64,000 bases of DNA from the NCBI RefSeq assembly GCF_026151205.1, contig NC_087082.1:19676494-19740493 (forward strand), given 5' to 3'. A model generated the notes under the pieces. The model did no database searches. It was not told the origin of the DNA and worked only from the letters and a program-made list of their open reading frames with translations. Positions 1,562 through 31,842 of this stretch are shown here, one piece after another. This stretch comes from Bolinopsis microptera. Taxonomy: Eukaryota > Ctenophora > Tentaculata > Lobata > Bolinopsidae. Position 1 is the stretch's first letter. Each line of letters opens with the position of its first letter. Both the position numbers and the translations under genes were made by a program.

Positions 1562-1740
1562 GGAGGAGGAGGAGGAGGACTGGGGAGGAGGAGGACTGTT
1601 GAGGACTGATGAGGAGGACTGAGGACGAGGAGCTAGGAGGAGTAGGAGTAGGAGGAGGACTGAGGAGGGGAGGAGGAAGAGGACTGAGGAAGATCAGGAA
1701 GACCTAGGAGGAGGAGGAGAAAGAGTAGGAGGAGGAAGCA
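1561..1740. repeat. GGA-rich simple repeat, right part
   Basis: Continuous AGGAGG/GACTGAGGAGG units. The small minus-strand frame read through it is Ser/Pro low-complexity sequence and not a gene. Confidence 0.85.
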
Positions 1741-8700: not shown

Positions 8701-11700
8701 GTAGAAGCAATGTCGTCTTTATTAATTCCAGGTTTTCTTCACAGTGCAGTGGATGAGTATCATTCCGCTTGCTCATCATTATAGCAAGTACCGTCAGGGG
8801 AAAGGGTTCAGAAAGAATGTGAAACTGTTTAGTTTTGTGAACCATTGAAGCAATGAGCGTTGAACCACATCTTCCTATATTGTGTAGTATGGTTAAATTG
8901 CCACCTGAGCTGTGTGATTTGCTTTTCAGGTATTTGACAACTGTGTCACGTGGAATAGTGATAACTTCAGTAGCATGGTCGTGGATGGTAAAACTGTTGA
9001 ACGGGTACAGATCTATGTCCGTGTAATCAACTCCTGGCCTGATCCGCACAAAATGGAATTCGTGGAATGTAAGCGAGTACAGCAGGACATCATTCTCCTC
9101 AATAACTTGGATACTTGCCAGCTCTTTAAACTTTAGGAGGTAGAAGTGGAGCCCGTTTGGTCTGCGAAACTGTTGCTTGAAATTCCAAACTACATGGTAG
9201 CACACAGCTACATCCTTATCTTTTATGTCTTCATCTTTTGGTCCGAACAGGAATGTGAAGAGTCTTTGCAAGATAGCTTGAACCACAAGTCCTAGGGGGT
9301 ACAAGAAAAAATATTCCAGTACGTCGTATACGTTTCTTGATGTTATCATGATACTACTGAAAACGGGGGAGTGAAGGATTATTCGTTCAGTCTTATATAG
9401 CGAACAAAAAATAACTGTCTTGCACATAATTTAGAACAATCTAATTATTCTCACAGTCAAACTAATAGCAACCAATAAAACCCAGCACCGAAAAACAGAC
9501 TTAATGAAAATTATGAGATGGCACAAAATATAATTACCCGTACATTAACTAATATCTTTTATTAGTATATAATAGCGGTAAATCGGAGTATTACTGTATA
9601 TTACACAGTTACATTTACAGGAGACCAAAATATCTAATAGGAGGTAAAAAACATGGAATATGAAAGTTAGAAAAATATTCGTGAGACTCAGCACTACCAG
9701 ACTGCAGCTGGAGTGAGAAATATTATGTAAAACAGTGAAATTTATTTCGGTTGAACCAAAACACAGTGTTATTTAAAACCATAATTACAAGTGCCGATAA
9801 TATAATAGAAGTTACAATACGTGAGGCTTATTCTCATTGCGAGAACCTCCGGTACCACTCAATTGGGCTAATATCATTTTGCGTGACCAAAACTATTTTT
9901 TGCTCATTACTCCTCAGGGAAGCATTTTGCCTTGCGTCACGGGGTGATTCGGAATCAGCGCCTAATAATACATCGATTGAAATTCACGCGTTTTATTATT
10001 CGCAAAATTAAACTCAATCTATTAAACACAATTTATTAAACATTCATAATTTATTCCAAACCGGCGCGGTATTCTAGGGCCTGTTGTGATATCATGGATC
10101 GCTTAGGTTCCACCAAGATCTGGTAGTCCTCATAATTCCGCGGCCTCTATAATGTAAGTATGTATCGTCATAATAACATAGAGGCCGTAAGGTAAATGCA
10201 ACTGTCAGTTCCCTCCTGGAAGATCTCGGCGTGATATTAAGATCGAGACTTTTCACGAAATGTTCGGGCTCTTTAGATAACATTAACATATTCGGTGCTT
10301 ATTACTTTATATTATATTTCTCACACTAATTTAACTTACTCAGGTAAGTTAGCGGGTTTTATAACATATTGCAGACGCGTAATTCACTTCATTCCCGAAT
10401 AAATAATGTCGGAGGATCATAATCAATCTTATTCATTTTGTGTTGCTCGACCTTTTCTTGCTGTGTTAAATATTTTATTTATCTCAATTATCCAAGGAAA
10501 GGGAATTTGGGGTGGCGGATGATATTCCTTGAATTTTAGAATTAAATTGATGAAAAATATTGTTTTTTTGTCAGTTAATCACAAAACAGCACGGATCCAC
10601 GGATCTGGTAAATGCTAAAATTATGGGTATTTAATAATTCCAAAGCGACAATGATCAATCTTTTGTTACCTGGAAAAGAATCGCGTATAAAATGTATTTT
10701 TGTAGACAGCAAAGTTACATTATCTTATTTTATTAGTCTTGTTTTATTGTGTTCTGCAAGTTAGGCGGTAGTTAGACGGGTATCTTGACTTAAAGCGTTA
10801 TTGATTGAATCATGGTCAACTATCATCTTCCTGCGGCTCTGGTGTCTTGTTTTGAGACACATTGCTAAGTTATTCTAGAACGTTTTGGAAGCCTCTAACT
10901 ATATTTCCATTGGTCCATTATAGACACGTGGTGTTGGTTTAAAACGCTGATTGGTCAGCACAAATTTAGTAATCACAAGAAGGAGGATATAGGATATTCT
11001 CAGTTCTGTTCCGAGAATGTTAGTTTATATTAAAGTCATTATTGTAACGGTATATTAGAACCAGGCAGAAACAAAGTGTGAAGGGCCTGAAAGTCTCCCA
11101 GAAAGGAGTCTGTTCTGGAGATTTCATTTTCTGCTCAACTAATTATAAATGATAAGGTTGAAAAACGCTTTTCGTGATTCAATCATTCAATCAAAAGGTT
11201 ATAACTTTCAGGATATTCGGTCCGAATATACTGACTTTAAACGTTATTGATTGAATCATGACCAACTATCGTCTTCCTGTTCCTGAGTCTTGCTTGGATA
11301 ACAGTTCATTTCTAAGTCATTTTAGAAAGTTCTGAAAGCCTTTAACTGTGTTTCAATTGGTCCGTTATAGACACGTGGTGTTGGTTTAAAACGCTGATTG
11401 GTCAGCCCAAATTTAATTATCACAAGAAGAAGGATATAAGATATTCTCAGTTCTGTTCCGAGAATGTTAGTTTATATTAAAGTCCCCCAGAAAGGGGTAT
11501 GATCTGGAGAGCCGAGCTGAATATTCTGACTTTAAACGTTATTGATTGAATCATGAACAACTATCGCGCCGTCTTCCCGTTCCTGAGTCTTGTTTGGATA
11601 ACAGTTCATTTCTAACTTATTCTAAAACCTTCTGGAGGCCTTTAACTGTATTTACATATTTCCTTTTTATTAACGTGGTGTTAGCTTAGAACGCTGATCA

Positions 11701-14700
11701 AGGACTGTTAATCACTGATTTTATCAGTGATAAACAATCCTTGATCTGCAAAGGGAGTGTTTGTTGGGTGAAGGTCTGGACTGCTTGTTGCAGTGACCTG
11801 AGCATTTAAACTATGCTGTAAGATAATATTATGACACATTTAATTTCCAAGCCACGGGATTTTTATTTTCGATGGGCTGTAATTATATATTACAAAGGAA
11901 TTTAATTTAAATCACTTACTTTCTAGGTAATTTATCTGTGTATATTATTTGATTATTTTACTTCTTGTCCAAGTCTGATGTAGCCATTGACCGTTCCGTT
12001 CGAAAGCCCGATTAAGTTGTGATTTATTTTGGATATTATGACAAACAATATAATATATAGAGGGGTAGCCCCCGTTCAAGATTAGAGCAGCACTTGTTCG
12101 GGTTGAATCAAGTTTACTTCTTCAGCAATATTGAAACCATAACAATATTTACCGATTGATAACACCTCCCATTAAATAGCACAGTATGGACGGATTAGAC
12201 GGACAGACAAATCCCTTCATGGACCTGGACCAGGGAGGAAAGTGTCAGGCTTACTACATCTGGATAGACGGATCCGGCCAGTTCCTCAGAGGCAAGACCA
12301 AAACATTGATGGAACCCACCATGGATCCCGACACGCTGCCGGTCTGGAACTTCGATGGAAGCAGCACAAACCAAGCCCTTGGGGAGAACAGTGATATCTA
12401 CATAAAGCCTGTAGCCTGCTTCAAAGACCCCTTCAGGCGAGGAGACAACATACTGGTGATGTGTGAAACCCTGGACCACGAGGGAAACGTACACCCCACT
12501 AACAGACGACGCAGCTGTGCTAACAACATGGACAAGTGCGCAGACCTCCACCCCTGGTTCGGGATAGAGCAGGAGTACACCATGTTTGACTTCACCGGAG
12601 TGCACCCTTACGGCTGGCCTGTAAATGGGTACCCTGGTCCCCAGGGTCCGTACTACTGCGGCGTGGGATCTGACAAGGTGAAAGGGAGGAAGATCGTGGA
12701 GGCGCATTACAGAGCCTGCATGTACGCTGGGATTAAGATAGCCGGCACTAACGCAGAGGTGATGCCTTCTCAGTGGGAGTACCAAGTTGGTCCCTGTGAA
12801 GGTATCGAGATGGGAGACCACCTCTGGGCATCCAGGTGGATCCTCCAGAGAATAGCGGAGGAGTTTAACGTGGTCATCAGCTTCGACCCCAAACCTATTC
12901 CTGGGGATTGGAACGGAGCTGGTTGTCACACCAACATCAGTACCCTGGCCATGAGAGAAGAAGGAGGACTGGAAGCTATCTACGAGGCGATAGAGTTACT
13001 GGGGAAGAAACACATGGAGCACATAGTGGAGTACGACCCCTCAGGTGGGGAGGACAACAAGAGAAGGTTGACGGGGCTCCACGAGACGGCCAGCATCAAC
13101 AAGTTCAACTACGGAGTGGCGCATCGTGGAGCTAGTATTAGGATCCCTCGCCAGGTGGCAGCTGATGGGAAGGGGTACTTTGAGGACCGCAGACCCAGCA
13201 GCAATGCTGATCCCTATCAGGTGACTGACAGGATCATCCGAACCATGTGTCTTGGAGAGTGAACCATCACGTGCCCAGTGATGACGTCATTATATACCGC
13301 TGACGTCATCAACATTTGAAGAGACAATTAGCATGATAAGGTAAAACTTTATTCGAGATAAATCTTTTAATATCTTTACGGTTCTACGCATGATGGTGAC
13401 CTTATGTGTTGAAAAGTTTGTTGGATCTGTTAGTTAGGGAATAATGCAAAATGTCTGGGAAAAAATTTGCGACAAGCTGATTTTTACAGGAATGTGTTGT
13501 CCATAGTGTCAGGAACCACCCCAAAGAGTTTTGAATCTGGATCTGTTGAGCAAAAAAAGTTACAGCTAATTTTCTCCAAGCGCGTATATTAGCCTGAGGA
13601 CCGCACTTGAAAAACTCGTAACTATCGTAATAAAGACCCCCAGGAGTACCATACATACATGTTACATGTTACATGGCGAGATCTCCATCCAAAAGGATTA
13701 GTCTGCGTCGACTGCGTCATTACTTTGTTTTTATAGGCTGACCTCTCAAAAATTTACTAAAATTTTGAAATTTTACTTAAATTTGGAAATTTAGCAAAAT
13801 TGTTGTACAATTAAAACATTGTCTAGTTATCAGTATTCAAATTCTAAAATTTACTTTCAATTGTCAATTGATCCTTATATTAGTATAGTAAATAATATAC
13901 ATATCACATCAAATTCTGTAAAAAAAGGTCCTGAATTATTAGCATGGTGTCTTTGATTGGCAACTATTAGGTCACTTCTGGCTATCCCATTTCCTCAGAG
14001 TTGTTTGATTCTCCTGAATCGTCCTGTCTTTCGGGTGCATTAGTGCAACTTAATCCACGACATTGACCACATGCAGGTAGACATTTAAAGCCATACTTCC
14101 GGCAGGAACACCTTAAGTACTTACAACTTTTCAAGGGTTCTCAACCTCCACCGAGCAATTGCAGCAAATGAGGTTGCGCATCCCTGACGGGGCAATCGCA
14201 GCTTTAGTCGGAATTGACCGGTAGTATCCTTCAGAACTCATCTCCCATCCATAATGTAGTGGATTTAGACTTGCAGTGTCGAGTGTCACCCAGTTATGGT
14301 ACTGAAGATATGATCTTAATATATGCTCAGTTGCAGAGGATGTAGACGGTGGTAGCCTTGATGGGTTGAGTCTTTTCTTTGCTATCATTCTACTGTAGCT
14401 GAGAAATCTGAGAGTTTCAAGTGCCTTGGTTTTATCTCCATAGATATGTTGAAACAAGGAGAGGCCAGCTTTAATTACTTCATTTGTTGAAACTCTCACA
14501 GAGAGTAATGATGCTAAATGACCCTCCTCATGAAAAGAAACTGCCTTTTTCAATATCTTCACCTTACCAAAGCCATGTATACTGCTGACCGTGTCACATC
14601 CTGAGAAACTGTGAACAAACAGTAATATGCGTTTTATGTTGGCATCAAGAGCATTTACTATTTTACTGATCGAGTGTGAACCGTTTTTGGTCGTCATCAC

Positions 14701-17700
14701 AATTTCATTGTGATTCTCAGTAAAATGATGAATAAGGAGGCAAAGTATATCAGTATCCTCTGCTTTTACCTCAACATCTTCGTAGAAGAACAAGTTTAAA
14801 GCTTTACTAGCTACCATGGTATCAGCATCATCAGTAGCTACATGTACTTCAATTACATGTACTGTAAAAACGTTCGACAGAAGCTTTATAACTTTATAAG
14901 CTCATGCTTGTTCTTTGAGTTGCTGAACAGTTTTTTTCATTGGAACTGTGCACACAGTAGTACTTTTAATAGCTATATCAGAGCAGTATGCCTTGATTCT
15001 TCGCTGATGCTCATGATCTTTTGTCGATCGGGCATAGCCATCAAACACAACAATCACTTTCCGCTGTTCGGATTTCGGAACTAGCTTAAGGTATTCATTA
15101 GCTATGTCGCCGTATGTTTCAAAGCCTGTGAACGAGGTAACTTGATAGAGTATCCATCCACCATCAATTATTAATGGGGAGGATGGGTTGCTAAATGTCA
15201 CAGTACAATCAACATAATTCTTGAGGTATTGCCCAAGGGCTGCCTTGTTTGCCTTTCTCATCATCTGCTCATTGTTAAAAAGACTCATCGGCATTGCTGT
15301 GAGCTCATATTGCAAGCTTTCCTCCAGTGTAGACTCTCGTTCAGATGCGAAGACAAGCCGATTAAAAATTGTCAATGAGTCTATAACAATGTCTTTTTCG
15401 TTCACCCTCACTGTCCTCTTTAGAAGGGTCAAGTTTCCGACTTTGCCTTTAACTCGAAACTTATCGATAAAGCTTTTTCCATCCAGCTCTTTCTGGAGGG
15501 CAGTACCAACTAAAATACAATCTTCTGGGTTGACATTATCCTTCTCTTTCTGTGATATGAGACCCGTTGAGTACGATAGCATTTTAGTCTTGTCTTCAGA
15601 TTCGTCGAAATCAGCTGTATCTTTAAACCAACACAACAGCTTGGTAAACACTGCAATATTTTTCTGTACAGAAGATTTGCTAAGATCTAAGTGATTAGCA
15701 CTAGAGGCTTTTGTTGTTGTTCTTTTATTCGATAAGTCTGCAATAGCTTCATCGACACTCTCGTTTATCAACGCCATTTGATTGAGGGTTGCAGTCCATA
15801 ACTTATGGGCAGATTCATGAGTTCGCATTCTCCCTCCAGACAAACCCCCTGATGACTTTACAGCCTTCATTAGTCGCTGTTCGATCGACAGGTCTGTCCA
15901 CACACCAGACCACTCGTGTTCATTATATCGAACTGTGTGCAGACCTACGACCTTGAACGTTTTGACTAGTGCCCCATACTGAATCTCAAGTACGGTAATC
16001 TGCTCAAGATACAGCCGTAGAGCTTTGGAGTACTGACCTCGACCTGCTGCTGCAAAGATAGGCAACATCTTAGCCACAATTGCAAGATGTAGATCGAAGT
16101 CATGTAACCGTTCTGCTCTTATAAAATCTTTTATTAAGCAAATGAAACCATGATAAGTTGTCCAAAGAGCAGCTGTGCGGCTGTTCGACGATAAAATATC
16201 GAACTTCTTTTTTATACGCTCTGATAACTCTTGTACGACTCTGGTCTTGTGGTTTACACCGAGTTTTTCATTGCTACACTTGGCAGCTATGTATGTGTAG
16301 CTAGCCATATCTTCAAGATCCTCCTCTGCTATTTTGTCCTCAAATAAATAGCAGCAGAGCACAATCTATTAAAAAGTGGGCCCTCAGTGCTTTGTAATAG
16401 GATCCACCGTCCATTATGTGAGTTACATTCCCAGGGTAGACTAATCTCATAAGGTCTTCCAGTCCGATGTCTGCCATGATATAACCCACACACCCCAAAA
16501 AGCTTTTCAGGGTGTGGAAGCCTCCCAGCCTAACAATAACTGGCATTCCTGTCTCGAGAACTATCCGACTAGCCTTCAACCAAAGTGGTAAATCGAAAGT
16601 GATTACCATCGGTTTGGTTGAGGCTGTCTTCAAGCACTCAATAAGTGTTGTATAGACTGTTGAGTAGCTGTCTGGGGGTTGATCGATTATCTGCAGGAAC
16701 TCAATTTGTGATCTTGCCTTCACATTGGGCTTATGCAGTGATTTCATGAAACCTTTCCAATTGACGGGAGGATTGGCAGGGGTAAGTTCATCTCAAAAAT
16801 ACGGCTTTTAAGCTTTACAAAGAGTTTTATCAGAATTTGAAACGTGATAATTGTTGACAAATCAACAACCTTATTTACAACTACAAAATAAGGAAGCCAT
16901 ATCCGTACTCGGCTTCCATAACATCCCCACTACAACAATTTTCGCAAAATTTCCAAATTTAAGTAAAATTTCCAAATTTAAGTAAAATTTCAAAATTTTA
17001 GTAAATTGTTGAGAGGTCAGCCTATAAAAATGAAATTATCTCAATAAGTAAAGATCTGACGACCCTGAAACACTGATTCGCCCCACATAATGTCACTATT
17101 GCGGTCACTATTGCGGTAATTTTACACCCCCTATGGTACTCCTGGGGGTCTTTATTACGATAGTTACGAGTTTTTCAAGTGCGGTCCTCAGGCTAATATA
17201 CGCGCTTGGAGAAAATTAGCTGTAACTTTTTTTGCTCAACAGATCCAGATTCAAAACTCTTTGGGGTGGTTCCTGACACTATGGACAACACATTCCTGTA
17301 AAAATCAGCTTGTCGCAAATTTTTTCCCAGATGGTCCTATATTAATGTTAATTGTCCCTAACTATGTGTACTTATTTTACACTAACTAACGAATTTCACA
17401 TAGGTTTTATTAAGATTCTTTTTGTGAATTATACTGAAATTAATTTTAATGATCGTTATCCGCATTGAATAGTTTTATTTACATCTTATTATTATATATG
17501 TATAAATAAAATTCCTAATTCTCGAAAATAATAGATTCTAATTCCTAAATTGATTGCCGAATTACTGCGAAAATTGACTAACAAAACTGTCAACCACAGC
17601 TAGTTTAAACAAAGCCTTCACCCCATACAACCAACCAAGAGAGTTTGGCAGAACGCCAGGGGATGAGATACAGTTTTGCTCAACATCGAAAGTTAGGCGA

Positions 17701-20261: not shown

Positions 20262-21359
20262 TCATTTGAGTCCCATTCTTTGTGAGATGGTGTGAGTTAG
20301 GGCAAGAGTGAGATCCTCTCTCATTCCGTATTGTTTTGTGAATGCTTTAGCTAAGGTGTCAGGATCGTCTCTCTGTAATTTGTAATTTGTAATTTGACAA
20401 ATGTAACGAGGACTTCTTGTACACATTAACTAACAAGCAATTTTAAATTTAATAAATTCAAATTACAATAGAATGTCTACATTGTCGCAATGAATTTCAG
20501 TTGATCGCTTTTTATGAAAACCAAAATATAAAGTCTGACCTGTCTGACTTTCAAGACTGCGACCTTGTCAGGACAGTACTCAATGGATAAAGTAAACACA
20601 ACTCCGTCCTTATCCTGAAGTGGAGATCTGCTCTTAATAATTTGTATTCAGCACCTCCTCCTCTAGCATAATTCAGCCCATTTCCTTAATTTTAGATAAA
20701 GATAAAGGCACTCAAATAGTTTGTACATTAATATAATTTGATATTAAATATAATAGTCTATTAGTTCCTACTAACGGGTTTGTCCATGTACTCCTTTTTG
20801 TTTTGTTCTGCAGTAAACCGATCAGTAAATCTTCTGTCATCACGCGATCTTCCTCTATTTCGGCGGTCATCCCGTGAGCGGCGGTCATGTCGGTCCTTGT
20901 TCCTTGAATGATCCTCCTTTACTTGGCCCTGAAAATATGATCACTAATTAATATTTCTGACTGATCCTCCTTTACTTGGCCCTGAAAAATATGATCACTT
21001 ATTAATATTCCTTGACTGATCTTCTTTTAATTGGCCCTGAAAATATGATCACTAATTAATATTGAATCCTAGACGTAAGACATACCAAGAGCGATAGTGT
21101 CTGAAAAAAATATTCGCTTAACTTTCACCAACATCTGGCAAATAAACGGTCTGCAAATCCCATGTAAATCATGTGTAATCCTATGTAAATCCCGTGTATT
21201 CCCGTATATTTGCCCTACTCCAACCCTAGAAAATAATAATATTTGAGGTACCTTTAGTTTCTCCTCGTGGTAATCTCTCCTCTCTATCTGGTTACGCTTT
21301 ATGTGATGTAGAAATCCGTGGTTCTTGTCTAGTCTTGGTTTATGTTGCGACTCTTCCAT
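20262..21359 (-). CDS. Unidentified 148-codon protein with RS-rich segment, four exons
   Basis: Exons 21359-21252, 20928-20776, 20614-20540 and 20372-20262 join in phase 0 at every junction through GT-AG sites. The N-terminus is basic and charged; exon 2 is rich in Arg, Asp and Ser (DRRSRDDRRNRGRSRDD), like splicing-factor RS segments. The last two exons form a small folded-looking unit with a beta-strand-like VVFTLSIEY followed by helices containing DPDTLAKAFTKQYGM and a C-terminal ISQRMGLK. I do not recognise the family. A CAG ends 5 nt before the ATG. The stop lies 660 bp upstream of the PFDN1 ATG on the same strand, so co-transcription is possible. The acceptor of exon 2 sits in a triplicated repeat. 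Confidence 0.65.
20909..21064. repeat. Triplicated splice-acceptor repeat
   Basis: A unit of about 55 bp containing GATCCTCCTTTACTTGGCCC, then TGAAAATATGATCACTAATTA, occurs three times. The first copy includes the acceptor (minus-strand TTTTCAG) and the first 20 nt of exon 2 of the RS-rich gene, so the gene has three near-equivalent acceptors. Confidence 0.8.
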
Positions 21360-21673
21360 CCTTACTGGACAAATCAATTATCAGATTTGGGGGTGGGGTG
21401 GCCGGTGGATAAATTTGTGTTTCTCTTTTGTGATAACTTCAAGCACACATTATAACAATTCTGTCATAAAAACTGAGGTACAAAATAAATTCTACACAAT
21501 TGACTGAAAGAAAAGCATTTATGAGTAGAACGAACAAGTGAATGAATATAATTTATGAATACAATAAAAGTTATTATGTAATACATCATCCTCTATATTG
21601 TAGAGTTGTAGGGATCACCTCAATGCAGTGAACAAGTAAAATGTCAGTTTTCTAGACAACATCGCATTTACTG

Positions 21674-23306
21674 TCACTTACTAAACATAACTAGTATGTT
21701 GTGAAAATTCGAATAAACCTTGAACTCCCAGTCGTCTCTTTCTTGATGAGCATCTTTAACATGAAGCCAACCTAACCAAGTTAGTGGTAATAGTGGGCTA
21801 TAATATTCACTAATAAAAACATGCATTTTCTCTGCTCTAATCTCATCATGAAAGTGCACTGTTTCACCCAGGTAATCTTCTTTATCAGTACACAGTCTCA
21901 ATGTCCACAATGCAGCTTCACTGGGGACTGTTTTTAGAATAAATCCACATTTACCAGGTAGATTACAAGATGATACTGCAACTGACGGGTGTTGGAAGTG
22001 GAAGATCAGCTTGGAGTCTTTTGAGAGTATTGAACTCAGTGGTTTATCAATATCACACGGGAAAATACAGGGAATAACGGTAGTGTGTGAGGTATCTTGT
22101 TTAATGTTTATTAGCAGAGCAGAATTGGTTTAACTTAAACCACACTTGCTGGTGTTTGTTATTCCAAAGAACTAATTCATAGTCAATTAAGTTATCCGGT
22201 AAAAGAGACCAGCCTCTCTTCTCTACTAGGTCTGTTAGTCTAGCTGACAACACAGCAAAGTCAACATTACAACTCATATCATTGTTATTACTCTGATTAT
22301 AATTGTACCGGTATCTGTTCCAAGTGTACACAGCTTCTAAAGCCATCAACAAACTGGTAACATCTCCAGACACAGACAGCCAGTCCAGCAACTGATTAAA
22401 TGACATGTTTATATCGATATCATGGTACAAGTTGGGTATAATGTTACATCTAGATACTGTTGTTGAGCTGGATCCACTTAATTCATCAGAACTATGAGCC
22501 AGCTCAGTTCTCTGTTTGGAACTATTGCGAAGAAGCTCAAAAGTCCATCTCAATTTATCATCTGGAAGGTCCCCAAGAACATCAAATAAGTGGTCAAACA
22601 AAACTCTGTCGGAGTTTCTACACAGGGAAAGATCAGAGTTTTCCAGAAGATACTCACAAGAAACAGAAAGACTGGAACCCTGAACTTTAAACTGTTCTGA
22701 TAACTGATTAGTTAGAGTTTGTACAACACAGTTAACTTCAGAACCAGCTAGCTCTATCACCATGTCTAGTTTCTGTGTAGATAATCTGTCTGCATTCTCA
22801 AGATACCTGTCTATAAACTCCTGTTTCCACTTCATTATCTCAATCTTCTTGATGGTAAGATTTAGATAATCTTTTATCTTCAGCTTCTCATAAACAAAAC
22901 CTGCTTCTTCAAATAGATAAAGTAGTTCTGTATAGGACGGAGTTTTAACCGAGTCAGCTATTTCAGTGAAATATTCAGCACACTTTTCAGCTAACCAAGA
23001 CATTTCAAACACATTAGCCATCTTGTTGATGTCCCTGAATAGTTCCCTGGTTATCCCCTCTGCAGTTCCAGAGTAAGCTGCATCAACAAGCAGCTGAACA
23101 GCAGCTTTACTGAACTCCAACATGTCCACACTGGTCATGTGAAGGGTGGTTGTCATGTGATCAATGACGGGGCTGTTGAAGGATAGGATCACTGAGCTGG
23201 CTCGTACCTCACCTCCCTCACTTGTGTTCAGTTTTAGGTTGCTGTGAGTTGGGGATCCTATCAGGTGCCTTCCAAAATCCATCGGGACACTCACTTTAGG
23301 TAACAT
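21674..23306 (-). pseudogene. BTB-domain protein, copy 1, truncated by a 7-bp insertion
   Basis: The open frame (23306-22101) encodes 401 residues nearly identical to copy 2, then stops. A 7-bp insertion relative to copy 2, around 22101-22107, shifts the frame. The remaining C-terminal part continues in another frame to 21674 without further stops. A BTB/POZ fold lies at the N-terminus (LNTSEGGEVRASSVILSFNS, then a core with LLVDAAYSGTAEG), followed by BACK-like helices. There are no kelch repeats. BTB proteins usually dimerise and often act as CUL3 substrate adaptors; function here is unknown. Intronless. A conserved TTTAGCCAG lies 18 nt before the ATG. Could be a functional shortened paralogue rather than a dead gene. 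Confidence 0.75.
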
Positions 23307-23759
23307 AATGATATTTCTTGATTCCTGGCTAAAGATGGTTTGTTAATTTGATGATGACGAACTTAAACATCGTTTATTTTACAATTTAACATTATTCAAA
23401 GTTTGATTAAAATAAATTTCAATTGTCATACTTTTGTCTTAGTAAAGGTTCCATAGTTTAACTTGAGAAATTATCATCATAATCAATTGAAGAAAACAAG
23501 TCTTAGAAAGTTAAAACAAATCGACAATAATATAGAATTTCATAATTCACATTGATCATTATTAGTCATTTTCGAGAAATATGTCGATAGAGAGAAGAAA
23601 TTAAAAATAAAAGTCATATAATAAGAATATGTCCATTTCCTGAAAACAAAAAAGTAATCGTCAGTAAAATTAAGATAACTTTTTAGGTACAAAAATCAAT
23701 CCAATAAAAAACAAGTTAAAAATTTAACATTTACTCCCATGCTAACATGCAGTCTACTA
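23307..23759. other. BTB copy 1 upstream region
   Basis: The first 200 bp align with the upstream regions of BTB copy 2 (25848 on) and of a third, gene-less leader at about 27274-27460. Otherwise AT-rich with no gene signal. Confidence 0.6.
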
Positions 23760-24000
23760 AATCAGATAAATCTCATATCAATATTCTAGATTATCTTCCT
23801 CAGACCAGGTTAAATAATAAACAACTTACCAAGGAGTCATTACATGCTTAATATACCTTGCTAATTATTAGTTAATTAGTAATTATCTCAATCACACACA
23901 ATTCCACCTTACCCCTTACCAAGTCTACAAAATAGCTGGTTTTTAAATGTCTGATCTTAGTGAGATGGGAAGGAGTAATGTAGTGGTGTACTGGTAGAGC
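23760..24000 (-). pseudogene. Decayed duplicate of the dehydrogenase 3' end
   Basis: This interval between the BTB copies aligns with the tail of the dehydrogenase gene (27984-28200). Shared words include CCACCTTACCCCTTACCAAG, TCTACAAAATA and GGAAGGAGTAATGTA, plus the end segment CAATATTCT. It lacks the upstream part of that gene and holds stops and gaps. Together with the BTB leader copies it shows that a block of BTB plus dehydrogenase tail was duplicated. Confidence 0.75.
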
Positions 24001-24206
24001 TTACAAACATTATCATAACAAAAAGATTATAAAAATAAGTTATCATGAGATCAGCTGATCAGGAACAGAATATTAATTCTGCAGCTGATATACAGTCCTC
24101 TTTGTTACAGGAGGAACCTCAACTTGGTAAACAAGTACACTTCTAGTTTTCTAGAGCAAAACTTATCTTTTCTACAATCAAACAATTACATCAATAACAT
24201 TTACTG

Positions 24207-25847
24207 TCACTTACTATACATAACTTGTATGTTGTAAAAATTATCAAATTTGATTTCCTCCCAGCTGTCTCTTTTTATATGAGCATCTTTAACATGAAGC
24301 CAACCTAACCAAGATAGTGGTAATAGTTCGTAATTATGAGAGTCACTAATAAAAACATGCATTTTCTCTGCTCTAATCTCATCATGAAAGTGCACTGTTT
24401 CACCCAGGTAATCTTCTTTATCAGTACACAGTCTCAAGGTCCAAAATGCAGCTTCACTGGGAACTGTTTTTAGAATAAACCCACATTTACCAGGTAGATT
24501 ACAAGATGTTACTGACGGGTGTTGGAAGTGGAAGATCAGCTTGGAGTCTTTTGAGAGTATTGAACTTAGTGGTTTATAAATATCACACCAGTCAATAGAG
24601 AGAATAACGGTCACGTGTGAGGTATCTTGTTTATTAGCAGTGCAGAATTGTTTCAAATTATACTCCACCCACCAGCCTTTGTTATTCACTAGACGTAAAT
24701 GATAGCCAATAAAGTAGGACGGTAAAAGAGACCAGCCTCTCCTTTCTACTAGGTCTGTTAGTCTAGCTAACAACACAGCAAAGTCAACATTACAACTCTT
24801 ATTTTTGCTTTTCCTCCTATCATTGTTATTACCCCGATTATAATTGTGCCGATACAAGTTCCATGTCCACACAGCTTCTAAAGCCATCAACAAACTGGTA
24901 ACATCCTCAGACACATACAGCCAGTCCAACAACTGATTAAATGACATGTTCATATCCATATCATGGTACAAGTTGGGTATAATGTTACATCTAGATACTG
25001 TTGTTGAGCTGGATCCACTTAATTGATCAGAACTATAAGCCATCTCAGTTCTCTGTTTGGAACTATTGCGAAGAAGCTCAAAAGTCCATCTCAATTTATC
25101 ATCTGGAAGTTCCCCAAGAACATCAAATAAATGGTCAAACAAAACTCTGTCAGACTTTTTACAGAGAGAAAGATTAGAGTTTTCCAGAAGATACTCACAA
25201 GAAACAGAAAGACTGGAACCCTGAACTTTAAACTGTTCTGATAACTGATTAGTTAGAGTTTGTACAACACAGTTAACTTCAGAATCAGCTAGCTCTATCA
25301 CCATGTCTAGTTTCTGTGTAGATAATCTGTCTGCATTCTCAAGATACCTGTCTATAAACTCCTGTTTCCACTTCATTATCTCAATCTTCTTGATGGTAAG
25401 ATTTAGATAATCTTTTATCTTCAGCTTCTCATAAACAAACCCTGCTTCTTCAAATAAATAAAGTAGTTCTGTATAAGTTGGTGTTTTAACCGAGTCAGCT
25501 ACTTCAGTGAAATATTCAGCACACTTTTCAGCTAACCAAGACATTTCAAACACATTAGCCATCTTGTTGATGTCCCTGAATAGTTCCCTGGTTAACCCCT
25601 CTGCAGTTCCAGAGTAAGCTGCATCAACAAGCAGCTGAACAGCAGCTTTACTGAACTCCAACATGTCCACACTGGTCATGTGAAGGGTGGTTGTCATGTG
25701 ATCAATGACGGGACTGTTGAAGGATAGGATCACTGAACTGGCTCGTACCTCACCTCCCTCACTTGTGTTCAGTTTTAGGTTGCTGTGAGTTGGGGATCCT
25801 ATCAGGTGCCTTCCAAAATCCATCGGTACACTCACTTTAGGTAACAT
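24207..25847 (-). CDS. BTB-domain protein, copy 2 (full length)
   Basis: A 546-residue intronless frame. Order: N-terminal BTB/POZ domain (about 10-115), alpha-helical BACK-like region (about 115-240), a linker with Ser/Thr run SGSSSTTVSRC, a second helical block, and a C-terminal part of about 150 residues rich in Trp and aromatic residues (WTLRLCTDKEDYLG, LSWLGWLHVKDAH) that looks like a beta-sandwich of unknown type. It differs from copy 1 by scattered substitutions and a short Arg/Lys insertion near NNNDRRKSKNKSCN. BTB domains dimerise and can recruit CUL3; the C-terminal part could be the partner-binding module. A TTTAGCCAG acceptor-like site lies 18 nt upstream of the ATG. Recently duplicated gene, probably intact. 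Confidence 0.85.
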   Translation of the reverse strand: MLPKVSVPMDFGRHLIGSPTHSNLKLNTSEGGEVRASSVILSFNSPVIDHMTTTLHMTSVDMLEFSKAAVQLLVDAAYSGTAEGLTRELFRDINKMANVFEMSWLAEKCAEYFTEVADSVKTPTYTELLYLFEEAGFVYEKLKIKDYLNLTIKKIEIMKWKQEFIDRYLENADRLSTQKLDMVIELADSEVNCVVQTLTNQLSEQFKVQGSSLSVSCEYLLENSNLSLCKKSDRVLFDHLFDVLGELPDDKLRWTFELLRNSSKQRTEMAYSSDQLSGSSSTTVSRCNIIPNLYHDMDMNMSFNQLLDWLYVSEDVTSLLMALEAVWTWNLYRHNYNRGNNNDRRKSKNKSCNVDFAVLLARLTDLVERRGWSLLPSYFIGYHLRLVNNKGWWVEYNLKQFCTANKQDTSHVTVILSIDWCDIYKPLSSILSKDSKLIFHFQHPSVTSCNLPGKCGFILKTVPSEAAFWTLRLCTDKEDYLGETVHFHDEIRAEKMHVFISDSHNYELLPLSWLGWLHVKDAHIKRDSWEEIKFDNFYNIQVMYSK

Positions 25848-26095
25848 AATGATATTTCTTGATTCCTGGCTAAAAATAGTTTGTTAATTTGATGTTGACA
25901 AAATTGAAATATCGTACTAATATATCAGATTTTAATGTTATTCAAAATATTGTGATAAAAATAAATTTCAATGTTCATACTTTTATCTTATGAAAAGCAG
26001 TAAATTTCTGTACTAAATTTCTGCAGTAAATTTCTGTACTAACAAATCTTCTATAATAGTCAAAACATTGTGCGGTTTAAATTTGAGAACTAGAT
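25848..26095. other. BTB copy 2 upstream region
   Basis: Homologous to the leaders of the other BTB copies for about 140 bp, then AT-rich DNA with a short repeat of TAAATTTCTGTACTA. No gene signal. Confidence 0.6.
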
Positions 26096-26098
26096 TAT

Positions 26099-26963
26099 AT
26101 TTGAGAATTATATGCATTAAGCATTGCCATAGCTATACCTAGTGAAAATATACTGCTCGAAATAAAGATCGAGCAAGCTGCTGCTAGCTCATCATCTTGT
26201 GCATATAAATTGGAGGATGGCTGCCCTGAATTTAAGACTGAACTTACTACAAATGAAGATATGATTGAAATGGGTCATATGAATTCCTGTAGCTCTGTAG
26301 GTTAGTCCTTTAGTCATAAAAACTGAAACTGTAGACTGTAAAGAATTTCAATGTGATTATTAAAAGTACTGCCCGATCATCTATAATATTTGAAGTCTCC
26401 TAAATAAAGTGCCGGGCTAATAACATGATCAGTTTCTGTCACACTGTTATTGAGCTTCGACCATGTTGCTCGAGCAATTATATGTTGCTCAGGCAATTAT
26501 TAGGGGTGGTTTGGACAGTATATAGATTAGTCTCATTACTTGCTGCACGACAACAGTGGAACATGTCCCCGGACACAAATTATGCTTCACATTGACCCGG
26601 TTAAAAGAGTTGCTGGGTACTATAAGAACGATTTCAAATTACTGCTAAGAGATCAGGACAGTACTAACAGTTGCTGAAGCACTAAGTTTTATCCCCTAAA
26701 CATCGATTCAATTGATTTTGATGTCGTTCAACTCTTCAATATAACTGCTGATCCAAATGAAGCTGACGATATATCGTCGGGTAATCCTAACATTGTGACG
26801 GATATGTTCTATGATGTTACTGACTACTTAAAGGAACATTGCAATGCATGCTTCCTTCAGTCGATGGAAGCTATCCTAATTATGATGTCCCATATTACAT
26901 ACCATGGGATTATAGCCCGGGATATTTACTGTTTTCTGCATTTTACAAGCAGTTGAAATACAA
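26099..26963 (+). pseudogene. Decayed protein-coding sequence of unknown type
   Basis: Several plus-strand segments read like protein. About 68 open codons end at a donor-like GTTAGT (near 26301; includes EFKTELTTNEDMIEMG). A second stretch from about 26583 has HIDPVKRVAGYYKNDF, then one in-frame TGA, then SIDFDVVQLFNITADPNEA. After a one-base shift near 26849 it finishes with YPNYDVPYYIPWDYSPGY and a stop at about 26966. I cannot name the family. It occupies the place where a third BTB copy would be expected. Confidence 0.35.
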
Positions 26964-27273
26964 ATAATTGGGTTAAATATCATGTTCGAGTAGTAAAACG
27001 AAACTTTAACAAATCGACAGTTGATAAAATTTACAGTTTATAGCATAATTGCTCAAAAATGAAGGAAATTAATTAATTAATAAATCTTAAAAACATGGTG
27101 AGCAAACGTTATATTTTATTTAACCAAAAATGTGGGCAAAAATGGAGCTAGTTTAGCAAAAATGTAGGTCAAACATTTAAAAAAATAAAACTTTGAAAAT
27201 TCAACTCTGGTTTTCAAATCGTTCATTTTGTATATAATTTAATATTTCAGTGCAACCATCGCAATCTATTGTG

Positions 27274-27460
27274 ACATTTCTTGATTCCTGGCTAAAGGTA
27301 GTTTGTCAATTTACAACAGGTAATGTTTGTACATTTGACTTAATTCACAACGAAATGAAAATAAATGTTGATGGTAATATATTTTATTTCAGTGAAGGTT
27401 GAACTATCTTGTCTAGGGCCTAGGCAGGCCAATTATTATCATAATTGAAGAAAACGGAAT
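27274..27460 (-). repeat. Third BTB leader copy without a gene
   Basis: ATTTCTTGATTCCTGGCTAA matches the 5' leader of both BTB genes, and the similarity continues for nearly 190 bp (ATCATAATTGAAGAAAAC). No BTB coding sequence follows on its lower-coordinate side, so the gene was lost or replaced. Confidence 0.65.
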
Positions 27461-27499
27461 TCAATAAATACCGTCAAATTTTATTTATCTTAGAGAATT

Positions 27500-27672
27500 A
27501 TAATCTACTAGAAAGCCCGTGGTAACAGGTAGTATTCTTTGAAAGAAAGTTTAAATTGCATCAAAAAACATCCATCCCAACCGAAGATACAGCCAATTTA
27601 AATATAAAACACTTTAAACACAACATAATTACCATAAATCCGATCAAAATGACGTTAAAACAATCTTTGCAC
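27500..27672. repeat. Dispersed repeat copy B (inverted partner at 4912-5090)
   Basis: Reverse complement of the PFDN1-intron copy, with CCCAACCGAAGATACAG and AATTACCATAAATCCGATCA as landmarks. Confidence 0.6.
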
Positions 27673-27983
27673 GTGCATGTGTGCATTAAAACACCGTTGC
27701 TATGGAACGTTTTGGTTGTTACCTAAATTCCTATTTTTCATCTAATTTGCACGTGGGCGGTCGTACAACATCAGAAAGAATTCTCTGAATTATAGTAGAG
27801 ATATCCATTCAGCAATCCACCATAAAAGATAAAAGTCATAATATCAATATTTCTTAGAAACAAAAAAAGATGCAAAATATTAAATAAAAATTCGTATAAG
27901 TTTCTTTGAAATTAGAGATTCACTCTCAATACTCATAAGCTCATATCATGCAAAAGATATGAAAAAATGTCCTTTTTAAGTTT

Positions 27984-29012
27984 TCAATATTCTGGGATTT
28001 CCTCCTCGGACCAGGCTATCTTAACCGGTAACCCACTAACCGCAGACTCCTTACAAGCCTCCACTACCTTGCTCACAGCCCTGGTCATCTCTCTGTCACA
28101 GACAACTCCACCTTACCCCTTACCAAGTCTACAAAATAACCCAGCTGGTTCTTAACGCTTGGTCGTAATGAGATGGAAGGAGTAATGTAACGGAGTGCTG
28201 GTGGAACCTGATGGGTCACTTGTCACCAGGTGGTTGGGTCTGGAATGTTCACAGTGCAACATACCAAGAGGTCCAAACACTTCCAGCCTCTGATCGTACC
28301 CGTAGCTGGAGTACCTGTTCAGGTCTATCGTACCCAGAGTACCGTGCTTGAAGGTCAGGAGGATTATCATGTTGTCGTAGTCGTTGTAGTCGGAGAACTC
28401 GGGTATTTGAGCGTTTCCAGCCACAAACACTTGTACAGGAACATCCCCGGTAACCCAGAGTAACAAGTCAATATCATGAACTGAGAAATCATCAAATATC
28501 CCTCCAGAGGGTCCGATATAAGACAGGGGAATGACTGGAGAGTCTCTGCTGACTGACTTGATAGTCTGAACTTTACCAACAGCACCGGCCCTCACTTGAG
28601 CCTGGATGTGCGAGTAACTCGGATCAAATCTTCTGTTGAAAGCACAGAATAAAGGTAGGTCAGCCTGAGCTGCTGCCTGGTAACATTGTCTTGTTCTCTC
28701 TAGACTATCTGATATAGGTTTCTCACAGTACACCGCCTTATTAGCAACTACAGCTGATAATATGAGATCTACATGGGAAGCAGTGGAGGACGCTATGATA
28801 ACAGCCTCAATACCCGGGTCAGAGAACGCGCTCTGTGGATCACATGACACTGTCACATGGGCTGGTATCCCGTGCTGCGCGCGAACCTCACCAGGGTCCT
28901 GCCGGGGAGACAGCACCACGCAGCAGAGCCTCAACTGTGTGTTAGCTCTGATGTTGGACAGGTACATGACACCAATACGACCTAGACCAATGAGAGCTAC
29001 TGCTAGTGGCAT
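27984..29012 (-). CDS. Gfo/Idh/MocA-family NAD(P)-dependent dehydrogenase, frameshifted 3' end
   Basis: The frame 29012-28152 encodes 286 residues: a Rossmann N-terminus ALIGLGRIG (6-14), EKPISD (97-102) with the catalytic-region Lys, and SVHDIDLLLW (177-186) with the family His. This resembles myo-inositol 2-dehydrogenase-like members, which oxidise cyclitols or sugars with NAD(P). The frame ends early. The expected C-terminus follows in other frames: NQLGYFVDLVRGKVELSVT, then MTRAVSKVVEAC, ending IPEY and a stop at 27984. Three single-base gaps within about 90 bp would explain this. At two of the three sites the decayed copy at 23.9 kb keeps an extra base. The start is uncertain: an upstream ATG at 29461 follows a CTCCAG site directly, with the CACGTG satellite in between. 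Confidence 0.75.
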
Positions 29013-29015
29013 GAT

Positions 29016-29420
29016 GCTGTCACGTGGTGTGATGCTGTCACGTGGTGTGATGCTGTCACGTGGTGTGATGCTGTCACGTGGTGTGATGCTGTCACGTGAT
29101 GTGATGCTGTCACGTGGTGTGATGCTGTCACGTGGTGTGATGCTGTCACGTGGTGTGATGCTGTCACGTGGTGTAATGCTGTCACGTGCAATGTTGTCAC
29201 GTGGTGTGGTTGTAGTGCCACGTGAGGTGTCACGTGGTGTGGTTGTAGTGCCACGTGGAGTGTCACGTGGTGTGGTTGTAGTGCCACGTGGAGTGTCACG
29301 TGGTGTGGTTGTAGTGCCACGTGGAGTGTCACGTGGTGTGGTTGTAGTGCCACGTGGAGTGTCACGTGGTGTGGTTGTAGTGTCTCACGTGGTGTGTCAC
29401 GTGGTGTGGTTGTAGTGAGG
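29016..29420. repeat. Satellite of CACGTG sites (18-bp and 36-bp units)
   Basis: The first block repeats GTGATGCTGTCACGTGGT (18 bp) about ten times; the second repeats a unit of about 33-36 bp containing GTGGTTGTAGTGCCACGTGG. About two dozen CACGTG palindromes occur in 400 bp, directly at the 5' end of the dehydrogenase frame and 0.46 kb downstream of PITHD1. Open frames through it on both strands are repeats without protein character. Confidence 0.9.
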
Positions 29421-29461
29421 GTGGAGTAGGGTGAGTGTGTTTTAAACCTTGCTGTTGCCAT

Positions 29462-29877
29462 CTGGAGGAAAATAGTTGTTATTATTGTAAACTAATAACT
29501 GCATAAATACTATGATTTATTTTCATTTGACGAATAAAATAGTGTCCGGACATGATATGGTGAAAGTCTAATATCGTTTTAATTTTCCTGATTGTTTAGT
29601 ATTCAGATCACGGTAAAATGAAGATAGCTTTGAAACAATTAAACTGGATGAGAACACACCTCTTACATACAAAATATCAAAACTCAAATAAACATATTTT
29701 AATGAAATAGTTACGTACACCAAATTTTCATCTTTTCATACAATTCATCGCAATTTAAAATTTCAAGGCAAGAATCCGACAACCTGGGCCTGTCTCTATA
29801 CGGAAGGAAAACAATAACTCTTAATTAACTACTAATTAGCCACTAATTAACTCTTAATTAGGCACTAAACTGTAATT
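29462..29877. other. Intergenic spacer between PITHD1 and dehydrogenase
   Basis: AT-rich, with TTAATTAACTACTAATTAG-type short repeats near 29821-29865. No gene seen. Confidence 0.6.
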
Positions 29878-31402
29878 CTAAGAAACCCCATGAGCCGAAT
29901 AGTCTGACGCCCCCGGAGTTTTGTGGTCCTTGAGCTGTGCGGATGATTCGTAGGTACATATCACAACGCCACGTTTCTGAGCCTGCCCGGGTATTGACAG
30001 TGAATATAAGCAGTGAATCACTAGAGAAGTGGATTTTACAACCATAGAAAAAGTTTGGGATTTTAGGAGACAGATGAATAAAATATATCAATTATCAAGC
30101 AACTAATGAGCATTTACCTCCGAAAAGTCACCCCGCAGCCCGATGTAACAGATTTTAGTTTCATCTGCTCCAAAGTTCTTGTCAAAATAGAGGGACAAAC
30201 TCTCACAGTTGTTGAATCTTGCTACCCTTACCAATAATTTTGTTAAAACAGTCCGGCAAAAAAAGTATAACTACTTGTATAAATAGAGACAGAAATAAAA
30301 TAATGTTGTGACACTGAAACTGGTCACAAGATTGAATGTAATCATTACAATTAACACTGTTACAGTATCAATTGAGTAATTGGTAATTATGGACATCTTC
30401 ACATCAAGTGTTTAACAGTAAACAGTAAATAATTAATCACATAATCACATAATTAATCACATAATTAATGACATAATTACTTGGTCTGGTACTCCACTAC
30501 ACCGTCCTTGTCGTGCTGTAAATCGAACTCCTGTTCAGCGTGTCTACCAGCGTCATCAAAACTAACCGGTACTGCGTTCTTAAACCTACACGTGCATTCC
30601 AGTGTGACATACACGAAATATACACGTGATATACACATGATATACACTTATACACATGATATATACACATGATATACACGTGACATACACGTGATATTAT
30701 ATACACATGATATACACTTATACACATGATATATACACATGATATACAAGTGACATACACGTGATATTATATACACATGATATACACTTATACACATGAT
30801 ATATACACATGATATACACGTGATATACGCGTGACATACACGTAACATACACGTGACACAACTCGATACAGTTCGGTGTGGCAATTCTACGTTGTTTTTT
30901 ACATTATTTTGCTAATCTCGAAGTTTCATTGATATAAAAAGTTGTGAATGTTGGGAGAAAGTTTTCCAAGTAAACTCACACTTTTAGATGAGAAGGGTCA
31001 CTCTCCCCACCGCCACCTATAACTATAATCCCTTTTAACTTGACACTTCCAGTAAAGAGAAGTTGAACAGTAACTCCTCGTCCAAATCACTCTCTACAAA
31101 CTGAAAATATCCAAGTCACTCTCTACACATGTATGTAACATGTATGTAATTAATTTTGTTCCCGATAAGACCTTTGGACGTGAGCCTACAACAACCTCAT
31201 AGAAACTACCCAAAATAGCTCGCGCTACAAACCTTTGATTTATCCTTCCTCAAATCCCAGGGTTTAAAAACGCTTGCTCCAGACCCCTCTATAGTTTCAT
31301 TGAGACAGTCCAAAGTCTGAAATCTATCTTTGTGTACAAGCTGTACTCCCTCCCTCGTTCTGGATCGTCGTGTTGGTGAGCCTCGTGGCTACAGCATGAC
31401 AT
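29878..31402 (-). CDS. PITHD1: PITH domain-containing protein 1 (PITHD1), five exons
   Basis: Exons 31402-31233, 31100-30980, 30585-30481, 30226-30118 and 29982-29878 give about 203 residues, near the 211 of the human protein. Landmarks along the chain: GSGASVFKPWDLRKDKSK, then FVESDLDEELLFN, then SVKLKGIIVIGG, then FDLQHDKDGVVEYQTK, then LYFDKNFGADETKICYIGLR, ending VVICTYESSAQLKDHK. PITH is the beta-sandwich shared with TXNL1 that binds the 26S proteasome; PITHD1 itself is a small cytosolic protein. Splice sites are all GT-AG and phases fit. Two single-base gaps break the frame: one C missing in exon 1 (TTCAGACT near 31320) and one T missing in exon 2 (near 31045). Both are in homopolymers, which points to assembly error in an otherwise intact gene. 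A CAACAG lies 3 nt before the ATG. Confidence 0.93.
30605..30860. repeat. Minisatellite in PITHD1 intron 2
   Basis: About three units of roughly 69 bp built from ATACACATGATATACACTTA, then ATATACACATGATATACACG, with short CACGTGATAT variants. Overlapping frames (YHVYIMCI-type repeats) are not genes. Confidence 0.85.
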
Positions 31403-31842
31403 GACCTGTTGTGGTATATTGGTTAAGTTATAATACTACTTACTACTACTACAGCATGGTAATTTGAGGTGCTTTTCTACAGCTTGCTTGTTTGTTTGTT
31501 TTGAAAGTTTACAAATACTTTGTTATAATATAATCATGAGGAGGGATGGGGAGGTTCAGGGAAATGATAAAAACTCTGACTTACTCCAGAAAACCAACTC
31601 TAACCCACTCCACAAGTTCCTCACAAGTTTCAGATGAAGATCCCACACTGCTCCAAGTAATTTTTTGTTTTGATACCTATAACATCCCTAGCTGAAGATC
31701 ACTTATATGTTTTAAACAAATCCAGGTACCAATAATCATTTCTTTCAGATGGATGTTTTCTTCTTAAACTGCTTTAGTTTAAGATGGAAGACAGTCAAAC
31801 TGAAGATTCCGGAATCTTATCCGTTTCTTTGTTCAGTGGTCC
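31403..31842. other. Region upstream of PITHD1
   Basis: Short TACTACT repeats near 31435-31450 and mixed sequence to 31842. Two alternative short open stretches on the minus strand near 31570-31660 lack consistent splice support. Nothing firm. Confidence 0.4.

What the first reader, a model, noticed from the sequence alone, without database searches (positions are those of the whole stretch)
9347..31408. Every defended start codon sits right behind a 3' splice-site-like CAG: possible spliced-leader trans-splicing
Distances from CAG to ATG: GS 1 nt, sulfotransferase-like gene 7, PFDN1 27, RS-rich gene 5, BTB copies 18 each, PITHD1 3, dehydrogenase upstream ATG 0. Intronless genes show it too, and most of the genes are co-oriented with short spacers (315 and 660 bp in two cases). 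Spliced-leader trans-splicing is known in several animal groups, including hydrozoans, ctenophores, flatworms and tunicates. The alternative is cis-spliced 5' UTR introns.
Basis: partly seen in the sequence, partly recalled or inferred. Interest (0 to 1): 0.75.

Follow-up and report, generated by a model that had tools for sequence, protein, structure and literature searches.

The report
Comb jelly's shared mRNA leader
The window comes from what is almost certainly a comb jelly, whose genome shows that it stitches one common 42-letter leader onto separate messenger RNAs and keeps fossil DNA copies of such stitched RNAs; the process is already known in comb jellies, and the particular sites in this window are plausible but not individually proven.

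Summary
The distances are right: all eight starts have a CAG 0–27 nt upstream. Alone this is weak: 32.5% of 2,278 window ATGs do, and the sites score only modestly as 3' splice sites. The wider hypothesis, however, holds. Assembly figures match Bolinopsis microptera, a comb jelly. The genome has 72 exact copies of a spliced-leader (SL) donor junction. Eleven units read alternate with 5S rRNA genes and carry a ~42-nt leader close to Hormiphora's published one, a GTAAG donor, hairpin sequences and an Sm-like site. Leader 3' ends not followed by GT number 1,314; reversed control 0. In one, the leader is fused to an intronless copy of an EMC6-family gene. In the intron-containing parent the fusion point lies directly after a CAG, 12 nt before the ATG. 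A repeat family shows the same swap after a TAG. So SL trans-splicing onto an AG just before a start codon is recorded in DNA here. No SL-tagged copy of a window gene was found, so cis-spliced 5' UTR introns remain possible gene by gene. SL trans-splicing in comb jellies is published; the SL-tagged DNA archive seems less described.

The parts
9357..9359 (-). candidate SL trans-splice acceptor CAG, 7 nt before the ATG (9349) of the sulfotransferase-like gene; tract CCTTCACTCCCCCGTTTTCAG
12182..12184 (+). candidate acceptor CAG 1 nt before the ATG (12186) of the single-exon glutamine synthetase gene
   Evidence: GS by Pfam PF00120/PF03951; 49th percentile of CAGs; kept in the duplicate L129
19630..19632 (-). 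candidate acceptor CAG 27 nt before the PFDN1-like ATG (19602); other AGs 12 and 36 nt from the ATG score better
   Evidence: Prefoldin_2 E=0.0045, below the curated cut-off; kept in the duplicate L130
21365..21367 (-). candidate acceptor CAG 5 nt before the ATG (21359) of the RS-rich gene (Pfam UPF0561)
   Evidence: 94th percentile of CAGs; kept in duplicate L131
23325..23327 (-). candidate acceptor CAG 18 nt before the BTB copy 1 ATG (23306)
   Evidence: 46th percentile of CAGs
25866..25871 (-). candidate acceptors TTTAG/CCAG 22/18 nt before the BTB copy 2 ATG (25847)
   Evidence: BTB by Pfam PF00651
29462..29464 (-). candidate acceptor CAG directly before the upstream ATG (29461) of the GFO/IDH/MocA dehydrogenase gene; tract TATTTTCCTCCAG
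   Evidence: 67th percentile of CAGs; tract kept in the two other copies L133 and L147
31406..31408 (-). candidate acceptor CAG 3 nt before the PITHD1-like ATG (31402); TAG in the duplicate L132
   Evidence: weak site, 17th percentile of CAGs; PITH domain E=6.6e-5, just below the curated cut-off

Best explanation
The genome is that of a comb jelly (best match Bolinopsis microptera) that uses spliced-leader trans-splicing. A small SL RNA is made from tandem genes, many of them alternating with 5S rRNA genes. It carries a ~42-nt leader, (G)TTTTAATACTTTCAACACTACTATATAACAAATAATTTGAG, followed by a GTAAG donor, two hairpins and an Sm-like site. The spliceosome joins the leader to an AG acceptor lying shortly before the start codon of many mRNAs, discarding the transcript's own 5' end. 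Most of the start-proximal AG sites of the window genes are probably such acceptors. Shown from DNA: the SL RNA genes, and joining of the leader exactly after a CAG 12 nt before the ATG of one host gene and after a TAG in one repeat family. Inferred: the expression, Sm binding and capping of the SL RNA, and use of the window sites themselves.
For: (1) Identity: 264.65 Mb; C1 26,206,493 bases; the 12 contigs among C1-C13 whose length was shown are 16-26 Mb (C12 not shown). Published B. microptera: 265 Mb, 13 chromosomes, largest 26.2 Mb, GC 38.5%. (2) Leader: aligns to the Hormiphora leader of PMC8527503 with score 58; best of 2,000 shuffles 37. (3) SL RNA genes: 72 exact copies of leader end + GTAAGATTAAG, reversed control 0. 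Eleven units of the C5 and C13 arrays were read and alternate with 5S. The fold has two hairpins flanking AUCUUUUGG (unpaired in the centroid, partly paired in the minimum), z = -3.2, 0 of 200 shuffles as stable. (4) Leader copies not followed by GT: 885 + 429, reversed control 0. Of 83 junctions read, 70 match the leader in at least 37 of 41 bases, and agreement with the SL gene drops beyond -42. (5) EMC6-family retrocopy L080/L081 (Pfam PF07019): leader joined to TTAACAGAAAACATG. The intron-bearing parent reads ...CATCTCATCAG|TTAACAGGAAACATG; three of its introns are absent from the copy. (6) Repeat family of L067: 13 other copies are listed; in 8 of the 8 fetched the body is preceded by the family's own TTATAG, while L067 has the leader at that exact point.
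Against: No leader-tagged copy of any window gene was found (40 of 57 candidates scored; start regions of 33 of 36 non-window matches read) and no leader copy lies in the window. Window sites score only modestly as acceptors, PITHD1 poorly. Only one host gene gave a parent-copy pair. In the L063 family the junction is blurred: leader and body meet at shared TTTAG-like bases. The copy's 3' end is a T-run followed by an A-rich stretch, not a clean poly(A) tail.
Confidence: 0.8

Rival explanations
1. The window's start-proximal AG sites are ordinary cis 3' splice sites of introns in the 5' UTR or after a short upstream coding exon.
For: Cis introns with usual acceptors exist in three of these genes (PFDN1, RS-rich, PITHD1). 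In the BTB copies the reading frame is open for 12 codons upstream of the ATG, including the acceptor. A cis and a trans acceptor look alike.
Against: The genome demonstrably trans-splices at such a site. Of nine BTB relatives with different upstream sequence, eight have a CAG 4-15 nt before the ATG, which fits an acceptor that needs no particular upstream exon; the C2 copies among them are a tandem group and not independent. RS-rich and BTB genes are only 315 bp apart.
Confidence: 0.2
2. The CAGs near the ATGs are chance or reflect start-codon context, with no splicing there.
For: 32.5% of all window ATGs have a CAG within 27 nt; site scores are only modestly raised; several sites are weak (GS, BTB copy 1, PITHD1).
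Against: All eight starts have one; the RS-rich and sulfotransferase-like tracts look like splice sites; the AG is kept in the duplicates read, though these differ by only 3-19%.
Confidence: 0.15
3. The dispersed leader copies are just a mobile element whose 5' end happens to equal the leader, so they say nothing about trans-splicing.
For: 56 of 83 junctions read share their first 10 body bases with another, i.e. belong to repeat families.
Against: The same leader is fused to unrelated bodies. One is a spliced host mRNA copy whose parent lacks the leader and has CAG at the fusion point. Another repeat family has its own 5' end ending in TAG in 8 of 8 other copies fetched.
Confidence: 0.03

Closest known systems
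Ctenophore spliced-leader trans-splicing (Hormiphora californensis, Mnemiopsis leidyi; PMC8527503, passages read; Derelle et al. 2010 not held, known from citations)
   Same: Leader of nearly the same sequence and length ending AATTTGAG; hundreds of leader copies in each genome (718 and 491); leader on 56% of Hormiphora Iso-Seq reads.
   Different: Here no reads were used. SL RNA genes with donor, hairpins, Sm-like site and 5S linkage are set apart from dispersed copies, and at least some dispersed copies are retroposed trans-spliced RNAs. The passages read describe the copies as shared first exons or leader loci.
Dinoflagellate leader-tagged retrogenes (DinoSL relicts; PMC6050394 passages; PMC12014239 abstract start in listing)
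   Same: DNA copies of trans-spliced mRNAs recognised by the leader fused to the body.
   Different: Animal, 42-nt leader; most copies read belong to repeat families, one clear host-gene copy.
Hydra spliced leaders on TE transcripts (PMC12220107 passage)
   Same: Transposon transcripts receive the leader.
   Different: There seen in Iso-Seq reads; here fixed in genomic DNA, with a family that swaps its own 5' end for the leader.
SL RNA genes linked to 5S rDNA (copepods, PMC4664967 passage)
   Same: SL RNA genes in tandem repeats or clustered with 5S rRNA genes.
   Different: Sequences not compared. Here there is also a C3 array of 591-bp spacing in which (47 of 7,194 candidates scored) listed no 5S gene.

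Membership tests
Spliced-leader RNA gene | short exon followed by a 5' splice donor | tested here: met
   leader end then GTAAGATTAAG in 72 exact copies, reversed control 0
Spliced-leader RNA gene | Sm-type site between hairpins | tested here: met
   AUCUUUUGG between two hairpins, z -3.2; sequence resemblance only, one of 11 units read has one T fewer; binding not tested
Spliced-leader RNA gene | multicopy, tandem, often with 5S rRNA | tested here: met
Spliced-leader RNA gene | covarying structure in relatives | not tested
   no second species' SL RNA gene sequence was on hand
SL trans-splicing in this genome | one leader joined to different RNAs exactly after an AG of the source sequence, which lacks the leader | tested here: met
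   EMC6-family gene and L067 repeat family; read from DNA copies, not RNA; L063 family ambiguous
SL trans-splicing of the window genes | leader joined at the stated CAG | tested here: inconclusive
   no leader-tagged copies of seven 170-nt start regions found; needs RNA reads
SL trans-splicing of the window genes | recognisable 3' splice site before the ATG | tested here: inconclusive
   17th-94th percentile of window CAGs
SL-resolved operon | polycistronic pre-mRNA | not testable with these tools
   only spacing is known (315 bp between BTB copy 1 and the RS-rich ATG)
Retroposed copy (EMC6-family) | introns lost | tested here: met
   three parental introns absent
Retroposed copy (EMC6-family) | poly(A) tail and target-site duplication | tested here: inconclusive
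   after the AATAAA a T-run and then an A-rich stretch; AAAAAAAGAAA stands both before the leader and after the insert, but is of low complexity

The most novel reading that the evidence does not exclude
Most of the 1,300-plus dispersed leader copies in this comb jelly (and perhaps the 718 and 491 reported in Hormiphora and Mnemiopsis) are not leader genes but DNA records of trans-spliced RNAs. Several retroposed repeat families are mobilised as leader-capped RNAs, losing their own 5' end and acquiring the leader each time. The genome is thus an RNA-free, genome-wide map of trans-splice acceptor sites in an animal, like leader-tagged retrogenes in dinoflagellates.
Probability: 0.65. Interest if true: 0.6.

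Novelty: new member of a known kind. Interest (0 to 1): 0.45.

Why it matters
What is useful is that trans-splice junctions can be read from genomic DNA alone: a leader-tagged retrocopy marks the exact acceptor of its parent gene. That offers annotation of true mRNA 5' ends in comb jellies. It also gives a way to date the leader and to ask whether mobile elements depend on the host's trans-splicing. And it cautions that counts of leader sequences in such genomes are not counts of leader genes.

Tried and rejected
Leader search with the 3' half of the Hormiphora leader: 204 + 173 hits against 144 + 178 for the reversed control, so not specific as a count. One hit (L001, near 5S arrays) led to the genes. 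Leader end followed by a strict Sm motif: 12 hits, against 11 for the control. Two resembling each other (L013, L014) looked like SL genes, but their likeness runs through the whole 400 bp printed, with many indels, so I rejected them as an old repeat.

Rfam at gathering scores on the window: 0 hits. Leader in the window with up to 3 mismatches: 0. Leader-tagged copies of window genes (40 of 57 candidates scored, 47 matches): 11 matches are the window itself. The other 36 are duplicates of the cluster at C11:20.61–20.65 and 6.73–6.74 Mb and BTB relatives. Start regions of 33 of these 36 were read and none has the leader's last 17 bases with fewer than 4 mismatches. Three were not read: one BTB match at C11:13448041, for which fetched the wrong stretch, and two dehydrogenase repeat pieces.

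Acceptor matrix from six cis introns: low power, since the proven acceptor itself scores mid-range. Search for further parent genes with seven bodies (40 of 153 candidates scored): repeat families (L104, L063, L067) and the loci themselves; no second host-gene parent. Sulfotransferase-like ORF: no Pfam match at E<=0.1. Operon evidence: not pursued.

Papers: passages read of PMC8527503, PMC7986045, PMC10282587, PMC10232365, PMC11797021, PMC4233971, PMC12220107, PMC6050394, PMC4664967. Others only as listings. That ctenophore leader-tagged retrocopies are undescribed rests on searches in one open-licence library, of which I saw listings and the passages named; Derelle et al. 2010 is not held.
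Full report
What was claimed. All eight distances are correct. A small 3' splice-site matrix from six cis introns puts the sites between the 17th and 94th percentile of window CAGs. For PFDN1 and BTB copy 2 another AG scores better, and in the PITHD1 duplicate the site is TAG.

Which organism. G000 has 264,652,675 bases; C1 is 26,206,493 bases long and the 12 contigs among C1–C13 whose length was shown are 16–26 Mb (C12 was not shown). The published Bolinopsis microptera assembly is 265 Mb, 13 chromosomes, largest 26.2 Mb, GC 38.5% (table passage of PMC11797021); window GC is 34–43% per 4 kb. Scaffold counts differ (346 published, 232 here). The organism is thus a comb jelly, very probably this species. 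SL trans-splicing is already reported in comb jellies: in Hormiphora the leader GAGTTTCAAACTTTTCAACACTACTTTAAACAAATTAATTTGAG is on 56% of Iso-Seq reads and 718 copies lie in the genome; in Mnemiopsis a leader motif occurs 491 times (PMC8527503 passages).

The SL RNA genes. A search with the 3' half of the Hormiphora leader gave one hit with a single mismatch, on C13 near 5S rRNA genes and followed by GTAAGA. Eleven units of the 5S arrays on C5 and C13 were read. In each, the leader end is followed by GTAAGATTAAG, then a hairpin sequence CTGGTTCTC/GAGACCAG, ATCTTTTGG, and a hairpin GCCTTCC/GGAGGGC, with small variants between units. The predicted fold is more stable than 200 of 200 shuffles (z -3.2). 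The Sm-like stretch is unpaired in the centroid and partly paired in the minimum-energy fold. An exact search for leader end + GTAAGATTAAG finds 72 places: 36 on C3 (mostly ~591 bp apart), 12 on C5, 22 on C13, one each on C1 and C2; the reversed pattern finds none. Divergent copies are also present on C13. The leader aligns to that of Hormiphora with score 58, against a best of 37 for 2,000 shuffles.

The fossil record of trans-splicing. The last 17 bases of the leader occur 885 times followed by A, C or T and 429 times followed by G and then A, C or G: 1,314 places where the leader is not followed by GT. The reversed control is 0 in both. I fetched 79 stretches: 78 around places listed, plus the C7 place. 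In them I read 83 distinct junctions with the exact 17-mer (junctions with fewer than 59 upstream bases, followed by GTAA, or identical to another were left out by the script). Seventy match the leader over at least 37 of 41 bases. Beyond -42, which was not used for this choice, agreement with the SL gene falls to 6–44%, which reads like the 5' end of an RNA. The bodies differ: 56 of 83 share their first ten bases with another (repeat families), the rest are single in this sample. These are the first listed places on C1 and C2, not a random sample.

Two exact acceptor records. (a) L080 on C1 is the leader joined to TTAACAGAAAACATGACTGAAGC..., an open frame with an EMC6-family domain (PF07019, E=7.5e-14; by recall it resembles RAB5IF). 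Its parent lies 4.2 Mb away in pieces. Upstream of the parent's first exon the DNA reads CTATACTCTTTTCAAAACATCTCATCAG and then TTAACAGGAAACATGACTGAAGC, with no leader. The parent has three introns in the stretch compared, with acceptors ending TTTTCAG, ATTTCAG and TTTCCAG, all missing in the copy. After the AATAAA the copy leaves the parent sequence with a T-run and then an A-rich stretch; AAAAAAAGAAA stands on both sides of the insert, which fits a target duplication but is of low complexity. This is best read as a retroposed copy of a mature mRNA on which the leader replaced everything upstream of a CAG 12 nt before the ATG. (b) L067 carries the leader joined to CTAATGTGAGAAGG. One search lists 13 other copies of this repeat; 8 were fetched, and 8 of 8 have instead a common 5' end TGTTATAATATATG...ATATTATAG directly before CTAATG. 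Again the leader replaces everything up to an AG. A third family (L104; 6 other copies listed) has the leader in 5 of 5 fetched; a fourth (L063; 14 listed) has it in 2 of 6 fetched, with a blurred junction, and three of the other four have 5' ends that look like a diverged leader.

What follows for the window. The one proven host-gene distance is 12 nt. In the eight fusions that have an ATG frame of 40 or more codons within 80 nt, the distances are 6, 7, 7, 7, 12, 19, 56 and 60 nt; some of these frames may be chance. In the BTB family, eight of nine relatives with different upstream DNA have a CAG 4–15 nt before the ATG, one (L136) does not; the C2 copies are a tandem group and not independent. 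No leader-tagged copy of a window gene turned up in the 33 of 36 outside matches read, and a 5' UTR cis intron would leave the same trace. I put the organism-level claim above 0.95 and the typical window site at roughly 0.6–0.7; the overall 0.8 is for the combined statement.

Compared with the known. The mechanism and its presence in comb jellies are known. The Bolinopsis SL RNA gene, its 5S linkage and the split between leader genes and leader-tagged retroposed RNAs are, as far as searches of one open-licence library go, not described for comb jellies. Leader-tagged retrogenes are well known in dinoflagellates, and leaders on transposon transcripts in Hydra.

Weak points. One host-gene pair only; the dispersed copies were sampled from the first listed; identity of the species rests on assembly figures and the leader; the Sm-like site is a motif by eye; nothing here measures RNA.

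Noticed in passing
G000:C1:3731159-3731236 (L057), C1:5605592-5605678 (L065) and others: Among the places listed, nine pairs of leader copies lie within 80 bp in opposite orientation, in all nine with the 5' ends facing each other; the two read form perfect or near-perfect palindromes. Template switching at the RNA 5' end is one possible cause; unexplained.
   Followed up: partly
G000:C2:1844714-1845297 (L118) and C1:24530377-24530635 (L110): Head-to-tail series of leader plus the same short body (TCAGGGAAGCGG...), as if the leader had been acquired repeatedly or the 5' end had been tandemly duplicated.
   Followed up: no
L148-L154, L166; pairs at C7:7683855/7688213 and C6:5584103/5588426: The L067 repeat starts TGTTATAAT, and some copies lie about 4.3 kb apart on one strand, several after the same GGGATGAG; by eye it could be the long terminal repeat of a retrotransposon, so the leader would sit inside the repeat's own 5' end.
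   Followed up: no
window 8078-31402 and G000:C11:20612040-20649860: The gene cluster (sulfotransferase-like, GS, PFDN1, RS-rich, BTB, dehydrogenase) has a second copy about 0.9 Mb away on the same chromosome, start regions mostly 90-100% identical (dehydrogenase 81%), and PITHD1, dehydrogenase and BTB a third at C11:6.73-6.74 Mb.
   Followed up: partly
window 31402-31230: PITHD1-like exon 1 is frameshifted relative to the C11:6.73 Mb duplicate; BTB copy 1 is also split between two frames. Assembly indels or decaying copies.
   Followed up: partly
L160, L162, L165 (5' ends of the L063 repeat family): 5' ends look like a strongly diverged version of the leader, possibly an older acquisition or an older leader variant (by eye).
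   Followed up: no
G000:C13:12.79-12.91 Mb (L030-L035, L037-L040): Many diverged SL RNA gene copies with numerous small indels near 5S genes, as in a decaying or poorly assembled array.
   Followed up: no
window 443-1693: Open frame resembling part of a retrotransposon reverse transcriptase (by eye; not searched).
   Followed up: no
G000: 25 BTB matches outside the window on C2, C3, C5, C6, C8, C11: The BTB gene is a large, partly tandem family; nine C2 copies lie about 2-5 kb apart.
   Followed up: partly
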